Source: Candidatus Thermodiscus eudorianus
Lineage (GTDB): Archaea; Thermoproteota; Thermoprotei_A; Sulfolobales; Acidilobaceae
Reading direction: 5' to 3'
Length of the DNA: 64,000 nt
Assembly: GCA_015521085.1 (NCBI GenBank)
Contig: WAOW01000005.1
Location: forward strand, 62,001 to 126,000
Positions 54,413 to 55,025 of the stretch are shown here, piece after piece; within the stretch, counting starts at the first letter, position 1, and the number at the start of each line of letters is the position of its first letter. The position numbers and the translations under genes are program-made. The notes under the pieces were generated by a model. That model was not told the DNA's origin, did not search any database, and saw only the letters and a program-made list of their open reading frames with translations.

Positions 54413-54513
54413 TGGTAGCGGGGGGTGGATTTGAACCACCGACCTCGGGCTGGACCTTCCCGGGATACTCTCCCGGGAGTGTGTCTCCGAGGCGGGGCTG
54501 CCGGCCGCTATTC
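54413..54513 (-). tRNA. Initiator tRNA-Met, 3' half gene (split tRNA)
   Basis: The minus strand carries a leader (54494-54513), a short linker, and the 3' part of an initiator tRNA: CCCG AGGTC, T-arm GGTGG TTCAAAT CCACC, acceptor CCCCGCT, discriminator A and CCA. No 5' half is present here. The 20-nt leader is the exact complement of the trailer of the 5' half at 54961-54980. A modelled splice leaves A38-C39 (54482-54481), then a 31-nt cis intron (54480-54450) with a hairpin TCCCGGGA-GAGTA-TCCCGGGA, then CCCG. The joined stem CGGGG/CCCCG is perfect. A TATA-like element lies at about 54538-54550. Confidence 0.85.
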
Positions 54514-54960
54514 ACTTGGTATTGAAAAAGGGCTTAATATTTTATCCTTGATTTTTCATTATATTTTATATTAGATTAAATAATTTATAGTTAAATATTT
54601 TATTTTTTATTCTAGTAAACATTTTCTAGGAGCCTTAAGCATTTCTCTGTCTTTACATAGGATTATCTCAGATATTTTTTATAAAAAATTATTTAATGTT
54701 GAATAATGTCCATCTGTTAGGATAAGTCTTATAGTTTTAAAAATTAAATATAATTTTATTATTAGTGTATCTCTATTTTTTGGCTTAATCCCTTTTAATT
54801 GTTTTGTCGATTTCGGGGTCTAGCATTAAACATTCACGTAGTAATACCTACACTTCTACATTTGCTAGTATTACCTGATTAATTTGATGTAGCGAAGAGT
54901 CATTCTTGATTATGTCAATATTAGTGATTAGTGATTTGGAAGGGAACCAGATGTGCGGAG
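54514..54960. other. AT-rich spacer between the tRNA halves
   Basis: About 450 nt of very AT-rich DNA with no open reading frame of note. Its left end holds the promoter of the 3' tRNA half (TATA-like at about 54538-54550, minus strand), and T-rich runs on the minus-strand side of the 5' half could end its transcript. Nothing else, including ORB boxes, was seen. Confidence 0.6.
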
Positions 54961-55025
54961 GAATAGCGGCCGGCAGCCCCAGGCTCATATGAGCCCCGCG
55001 GGCTGCCAGGCTACCCTACCCCGCT
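54961..55025 (-). tRNA. Initiator tRNA-Met, 5' half gene (split tRNA)
   Basis: The minus strand from 55025 to 54988 reads as the 5' half of an archaeal initiator tRNA: acceptor AGCGGGG (A1 pairs with U72, an initiator mark), TA, D-arm GGGT AGCCTGGCA GCCC, G26, stem CGGGG, and the loop CTCATA with the CAU anticodon. The cloverleaf then stops; no 3' half follows. Instead a trailer ends in 20 nt (54961-54980) complementary to the leader of the 3' half gene. The three G-C pairs G29-31/C39-41, the other initiator mark, form only after joining. A TATA-like element is at about 55064-55071. Confidence 0.85.

What the first reader, a model, noticed from the sequence alone, without database searches (positions are those of the whole stretch)
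54413..55025. Initiator tRNA-Met encoded by two split genes
Seen: on the minus strand 55025-54988 is an exact 5' half of an archaeal initiator tRNA (A1, three-G anticodon stem, CAU) with no 3' half after it; 54449-54413 is a matching 3' half with no 5' half. Trailer 54961-54980 and leader 54494-54513 are perfectly complementary over 20 nt. Joining after position 37 and removing a 31-nt insert gives a full initiator with acceptor AGCGGGG/CCCCGCT and stem CGGGG/CCCCG. Known: trans-spliced split tRNAs occur in a few archaea (Nanoarchaeum, Caldivirga, some Desulfurococcales), where complementary leader and trailer build the splice site. Inference: this essential tRNA is made only by trans-splicing here.
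Basis: partly seen in the sequence, partly recalled or inferred. Interest (0 to 1): 0.95.

Follow-up and report, generated by a model that had tools for sequence, protein, structure and literature searches.

The report
Initiator tRNA split by decayed selfish gene
In this heat-loving archaeon the one gene for the tRNA that starts every protein is broken into two pieces, and the DNA between them is the wreck of a selfish DNA-cutting gene whose intact relatives sit inside the same tRNA gene in related species, which suggests how such 'split tRNA' genes arise.

Summary
On the minus strand, 55025-54988 is iMet positions 1-37. Positions 38-39 (54482-54481) and 40-76 (54449-54413) lie downstream. The joined 77-mer is 100% identical to intact iMet genes of five relatives, and no other iMet was found in the 95%-complete genome. 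The 20-bp leader/trailer helix is perfect and a BHB folds at 37/38. A 31-nt cis intron sits at 39/40.

First, the halves are colinear on one strand, so a long cis intron is not excluded. Promoter evidence favours two transcripts: the 3' half has a TATA/BRE 30 nt before its leader, as in relatives (combined p=4e-8) and in the proven A. pernix split tRNA-Asp.

Second, the 447-nt, 26%-GC spacer is a decayed LAGLIDADG homing-endonuclease gene. Relatives carry open copies at the same site. In 229 genomes, two families (37/38 and 30/31) occur 21 times, 20 of them at iMet pieces. One congener pair shows empty and filled sites with matching flanks. In two genomes the halves lie on opposite strands with the endonuclease between them.

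Split tRNAs with adjacent halves are known. A homing endonuclease as splitting agent was not found in the papers held.

The parts
55061..55076 (-). promoter-like site (BRE/TATA) of the 5' half, AAACAATAAAACCCCC
   Evidence: 17.1 bits with a matrix from 37 own tRNA promoters (median 12.0); starts 51 nt before the tRNA
54988..55025 (-). 5' half of tRNA-iMet(CAU), positions 1-37
   Evidence: 100% match to nt 1-38 of the joined iMet
54961..54987 (-). trailer of the 5' half; 54961-54980 is the helix strand
   Evidence: 20-bp perfect complement to the leader; BHB fold
54514..54960 (-). 447-nt AT-rich (26% GC) spacer: decayed LAGLIDADG homing-endonuclease gene (N-terminal motif region ~54685-54756, C-terminal end up to ~54530)
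   Evidence: homology to endonuclease genes of G002, G033 and G017, above 200 shuffles; stops in all frames
54528..54543 (-). promoter-like site of the 3' half, AAAATATTAAGCCCTT
   Evidence: best of the spacer (8.5 bits), 30 nt upstream of the leader helix; position conserved in relatives, combined p=4e-8
54483..54513 (-). leader of the 3' half; 54494-54513 is the helix strand
54481..54482 (-). tRNA positions 38-39 (AC)
   Evidence: needed to complete the 77-mer that equals intact iMet genes
54450..54480 (-). 31-nt cis intron at 39/40 with its own BHB
   Evidence: fold; introns at the same site in G005, G017, G033, G056
54413..54449 (-). 3' half of tRNA-iMet, positions 40-76 with CCA
   Evidence: 100% match to nt 41-77
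53038..54372 (-). flanking phosphoglycerate mutase-like gene (start codon uncertain), conserved neighbour
   Evidence: same neighbour downstream of iMet in G025 (intact), G017, G004, G033
55068..55418 (-). flanking 116-aa frame, conserved neighbour
   Evidence: same neighbour upstream of iMet in G025, G017, G002, G004

Best explanation
The single initiator tRNA gene of this Aeropyrum-family archaeon was invaded at 37/38 by an element carrying a LAGLIDADG homing-endonuclease gene. That gene has since decayed by deletion and frameshifts to a 447-nt AT-rich spacer. The two tRNA halves now act as adjacent split genes: each has its own promoter, the 3' half first loses a 31-nt cis intron at 39/40, the two RNAs pair through the 20-nt leader/trailer helix, the heterotetrameric EndA cuts the resulting BHB (UA^U and AC^A), and RtcB joins positions 37 and 38. 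Shown: the sequence, the pairing, the promoters as sequence signals, the homology of the spacer, and the presence of the enzyme genes. Inferred: separate transcripts, order of splicing, that homing put the element there, and the share made in trans rather than in cis from read-through RNA.
For: Exact halves and no other iMet. Perfect 20-bp helix. BHB fold at -60.3 kcal/mol with two 3-nt bulges. Helix kept in G017 with a paired change: GCCGGCC/GGCCGGC here, GUCGGCC/GGCCGAC there. 5' half promoter 17.1 bits; 3' half site at -30 of the leader helix, matched at -35 to -39 in most relatives, combined p=4e-8; the same matrix finds the known internal promoter of the A. pernix tRNA-Asp at 14.9 bits. 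Spacer homologous to endonuclease genes. Open endonuclease frames in the spacers of G017, G056, G111 and G073, and one cut by the contig end in G002, with LAGLIDADG fold matches such as I-DmoI and PI-PfuI. 20 of 21 class-wide genome-by-family occurrences lie at iMet pieces. Empty site in G025 with the same flanks as filled G017. EndA alpha and beta closest to a solved pair of chains in one entry (3p1z), and RtcB.
Against: The halves are colinear on one strand, so cis-splicing of a 505-nt intron is possible. The 3' promoter score (8.5 bits) is below most tRNA promoters (median 12.0) and lies in AT-rich DNA, where three other sites score 7.9 or more. No terminator after the 5' half can be recognised, though ordinary tRNAs here show none either. 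No transcript data. The central BHB helix has three pairs plus an A-G mismatch.
Confidence: 0.74

Rival explanations
1. One ordinary tRNA gene with an unusually long (505-nt) cis-spliced BHB intron that once carried an endonuclease; one promoter, one transcript, no trans-splicing.
For: Same strand, right order, halves in cis. The 37/38-type endonuclease genes of relatives lie in the same sense as the tRNA, as in archaeal rRNA introns. The 3' promoter score is modest.
Against: Promoter-like site at a conserved distance before the 3' half in many relatives. The proven A. pernix tRNA-Asp has the same layout and is made from two RNAs (PMC3218864). Known archaeal tRNA introns span 11-129 nt (PMC3218864).
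Confidence: 0.2
2. Insertion by an unrelated virus or transposon, or a rearrangement, with the similarity to endonuclease genes a chance effect of AT-rich sequence.
For: tRNA genes are common integration sites; the spacer is AT-rich.
Against: Spacer homology exceeds all of 200 dinucleotide shuffles and covers both ends of the gene. Same genus and sister genus hold endonuclease frames at the very same site.
Confidence: 0.03
3. The pieces are a dead gene, and an intact iMet lies in the missing ~5% of the genome, or the locus is an assembly error.
For: Assembly has 10 contigs and is 95.5% complete.
Against: All exon bases and the 20-bp helix are perfect, which decay would not spare. The locus lies within a 418-kb contig, and relatives in independent assemblies show the same layout.
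Confidence: 0.03

Closest known systems
Aeropyrum pernix split tRNA-Asp(GUC) (PMC3218864)
   Same: Adjacent halves on the same strand, junction 37/38, GC-rich leader/trailer helix, promoter inside the spacer; same taxonomic family (G016 has its Asp halves at exactly the published coordinates).
   Different: Different tRNA; spacer about 120 nt without an endonuclease against 505 nt with a decayed one; iMet here has a second cis intron at 39/40. Separate half-RNAs were shown by northern blot there; nothing has been measured here.
Nanoarchaeum equitans split tRNA-iMet(CAU) (PMC3218864, Table 1)
   Same: Initiator tRNA, junction 37/38, complementary leader and trailer.
   Different: Halves ~32 kb apart there, about 0.5 kb apart here; no endonuclease remnant known to me there; unrelated lineage.
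Archaeal rRNA BHB introns with LAGLIDADG endonucleases (I-DmoI type; PMC4496867)
   Same: BHB splice sites and LAGLIDADG endonuclease genes; I-DmoI is among the structure matches.
   Different: Host is a tRNA, the 3' half has a promoter-like site of its own, and the 30/31-type endonuclease genes are antisense to the tRNA.
Permuted tRNA-iMet of Thermofilum pendens (PMC3218864)
   Same: Disrupted initiator tRNA in a crenarchaeon with an additional intron.
   Different: There the 3' half precedes the 5' half and the join is at 59/60; here the order is normal.

Membership tests
Archaeal split (trans-spliced) tRNA genes | Two part-tRNAs that together give one complete tRNA, no intact copy in the genome | tested here: met
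   (genome 95.5% complete)
Archaeal split (trans-spliced) tRNA genes | Complementary trailer and leader, BHB at the junction | tested here: met
Archaeal split (trans-spliced) tRNA genes | Separate promoter for the 3' half | tested here: inconclusive
   Sequence signal only: top site of the spacer at the expected distance, conserved in relatives, but weak in the window itself
Archaeal split (trans-spliced) tRNA genes | Halves made as separate RNAs and joined in trans | not testable with these tools
   needs northern blot, RT-PCR or small-RNA data
Archaeal cis-spliced BHB intron tRNA genes | Colinear halves on one strand with a BHB | tested here: met
Archaeal cis-spliced BHB intron tRNA genes | Intron within the known size range (11-129 nt, PMC3218864) | tested here: not met
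   54987-54483 is 505 nt; the 39/40 intron (31 nt) does fit
LAGLIDADG homing endonuclease gene | Open frame with LAGLIDADG motifs and fold | tested here: not met
   Window spacer: stops in all frames. Relatives' genes meet it by motif and fold, though Pfam scores are below cut-off except for the T-loop frame of G036
Group I or II intron | Catalytic intron RNA core | tested here: not met
   No such Rfam match in the window stretch or in four relatives' loci
Permuted tRNA gene | 3' half upstream of 5' half | tested here: not met
   Order is 5' half then 3' half

The most novel reading that the evidence does not exclude
LAGLIDADG homing endonucleases specialised on tRNA genes are what turns whole archaeal tRNA genes into split ones. 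An element homes into the anticodon arm or T loop of iMet (and, in related species, of tRNA-Asp), the 3' half gains or brings a promoter, the endonuclease decays or the locus is inverted, and an obligately trans-spliced tRNA remains. The window shows the decayed intermediate stage.
Probability: 0.55. Interest if true: 0.92.

Novelty: new variant of a known kind. Interest (0 to 1): 0.85.

Why it matters
Why archaeal tRNA genes are split, and by what, is an old open question: are split tRNAs ancient relics or recent, and which agent cuts them? [quoted passage not shown] Here a concrete candidate agent is visible, with every stage present in related genomes: empty site, filled site with an open endonuclease frame, decayed filled site (the window), and halves inverted onto opposite strands around the endonuclease. 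It concerns the one tRNA that starts every protein, and it makes the question testable by DNA-cleavage and RNA assays.

Tried and rejected
Group I/II intron in the spacer: no Rfam match; the lone weak SorX match is far below its cut-off. Terminator after the 5' half as evidence for separate transcripts: ordinary tRNAs of this genome show no T-runs either, so it tells nothing. ARAGORN with long introns reports a Met gene with a 522-nt intron, but with wrong joints (613-522 = 91 nt), so it was not used. The genome-contig scan with the flanking mutase brought one distant archaeon and no naming. PDB sequence search with two of the endonucleases found no endonuclease; fold search was needed. A search for the 5' Asp half beside the G206 endonuclease found none; G206's match is the one homologue not at iMet. 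Promoter position was not significant in some spacers (G023, G031, G004).

Full report
WHAT IS THERE. Read on the minus strand, the stretch holds in order: a promoter-like site (55076-55061), the 5' half of an initiator tRNA (55025-54988, positions 1-37), a trailer (54987-54961), a 447-nt AT-rich spacer (54960-54514), a leader (54513-54483), positions 38-39 (54482-54481), a 31-nt insert (54480-54450) and positions 40-76 with CCA (54449-54413). Trailer and leader are perfectly complementary over 20 nt. The joined 77-mer equals intact iMet genes of five relatives base for base. No other full iMet match exists in the 1.52-Mb, 95.5%-complete genome, and the 42 tRNAs found by Rfam include no other initiator.

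SPLICING ANATOMY. With the 31-nt insert removed, the two RNAs fold into a bulge-helix-bulge: outer helix CGGGG/CCCCG, central helix CUC/GAG (plus an A-G mismatch), two 3-nt bulges with cuts read as UA^U and AC^A, then the long helix (-60.3 kcal/mol). The 31-nt insert can form its own BHB (AC^A and AG^C), whose outer helix CCUCGG/CCGAGG uses leader bases that the 37/38 BHB also needs. The two motifs therefore cannot coexist, and the 39/40 intron should leave first (inference). Short introns at the same 39/40 site can be read in G005, G017, G033 and G056. The genome has both subunits of a crenarchaeal-type splicing endonuclease, each closest to the two chains of PDB entry 3p1z (the A. pernix enzyme, from my own knowledge), and an RtcB ligase.

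CIS OR TRANS. A promoter matrix from 37 of the genome's own tRNA promoters scores the 5' half's site at 17.1 bits; the best site in the spacer (8.5 bits) lies 30 nt upstream of the leader helix. Across 16 iMet loci, the zone 42 to 28 nt before the leader helix is enriched in such sites (Fisher p=4e-8, and 1.6e-7 without the window). The loci share ancestry in part and the zone was chosen after a first look at some of them, so this is not an exact probability. As a positive control, the matrix finds a 14.9-bit site in the spacer of the A. pernix split tRNA-Asp, where the paper reports an internal promoter (PMC3218864). Three relatives have halves on opposite strands: G052, G036 and G222. Trans-splicing is therefore the better reading, but cis-splicing of read-through RNA is not excluded.

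THE SPACER. In the same genus, G002 has a 162-aa open frame after its 5' half, cut by the contig end, with the motif LSGIIDGDGYIG. G017 has a complete 329-aa frame in a 1208-nt spacer; G056, G111 and G073 have 358-391 aa. AlphaFold models (mean pLDDT 82 and 87) match LAGLIDADG proteins: WhiA, PI-PfuI and I-DmoI among the best for the 37/38 type; bI3 maturase, I-Tsp061I and I-DmoI for the 30/31 type. TM-scores are modest (about 0.3-0.55), and for the 30/31 type no E-value is below 0.001. Pfam support is below cut-off for both types. The window's spacer aligns with both ends of this gene: 76% over about 94 nt to G002, and 68.6% over 209 nt to G033 (the latter stretch includes the leader). Without the leader, the best scores are 60.8 and 42.8 bits against at most 39.2 in 200 shuffles. 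It has lost the middle and carries stops in every frame. It is a decayed endonuclease gene.

THE WIDER PATTERN. A search of 229 genomes of the class found the 37/38-type endonuclease in 12 genomes and the 30/31-type in 9. All but one (G206, a weak match) lie beside or between pieces of iMet. The 30/31 genes checked are antisense to the tRNA; the 37/38 genes checked are sense. A third type sits in the T loop (59/60) of G036 (PF14528, E=1.3e-13). Within the window's genus, G000 and G002 are hit at 37/38 and G004 at 30/31. Within genus g14, G025 is empty and G017 filled, with the same flanking genes. In the window's family, 18 of the 28 genomes (at least 85% complete) with a match have an uninterrupted iMet and about ten do not. 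In G036 and G222 the halves are on opposite strands with the endonuclease, or its remains, between them.

tRNA-Asp. G016 has tRNA-Asp halves at 372080 and 372241, exactly the A. pernix positions in PMC3218864 Table 1, which places the window in Aeropyrum's family. The window's own genome has the same Asp layout (contig C8, 14177-14218 and 14404-14441). In G017 the Asp spacer holds a 155-aa LAGLIDADG-like frame (PF14528 E=3.5e-4, just below cut-off). So the endonuclease link may extend to the ortholog of an experimentally proven split tRNA.

STATUS. Split tRNAs, adjacent halves and a split iMet are known. Archaeal BHB introns with LAGLIDADG genes are known in rRNA. I found no report of such genes in archaeal tRNA genes, or of their link to split tRNAs, in the open-access papers held; subscription papers could not be searched. 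The result is a new variant of a known kind with a testable origin.

Noticed in passing
G000 contig C8:14177-14218 and 14404-14441 (L153), outside the window: The window's genome also has adjacent tRNA-Asp(GUC) halves 185 nt apart with a 14-bp leader/trailer helix and a possible internal promoter, like the proven A. pernix case.
   Followed up: partly
L154:664-1131 (G017): The spacer of the split tRNA-Asp in G017 contains a 155-aa LAGLIDADG-like frame, so tRNA-Asp may also be a target.
   Followed up: partly
L156:205-1707 (G206 contig C65): A 500-aa LAGLIDADG-like frame lies near a tRNA-Asp piece (query positions 27-76) that lacks its 5' part; no 5' part was found nearby.
   Followed up: partly
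L104:899-1555 (G036); also L112, L123, L118: In G036 the T loop (59/60) of iMet is split by a third type of LAGLIDADG gene; G111, G112 and G068 have similarly large gaps there, contents unchecked. Several iMet genes are thus in three pieces.
   Followed up: partly
L103:1769-1806 (-) and 4232-4262 (+) (G052); L139 (G222); L117 (G036): iMet halves on opposite strands, which need trans-splicing whatever happens in the window.
   Followed up: yes
   Followed up: no
L127 (G186, same class but another order): The 37/38-type iMet endonuclease also occurs outside the window's order, which would fit lateral transfer or great age.
   Followed up: no
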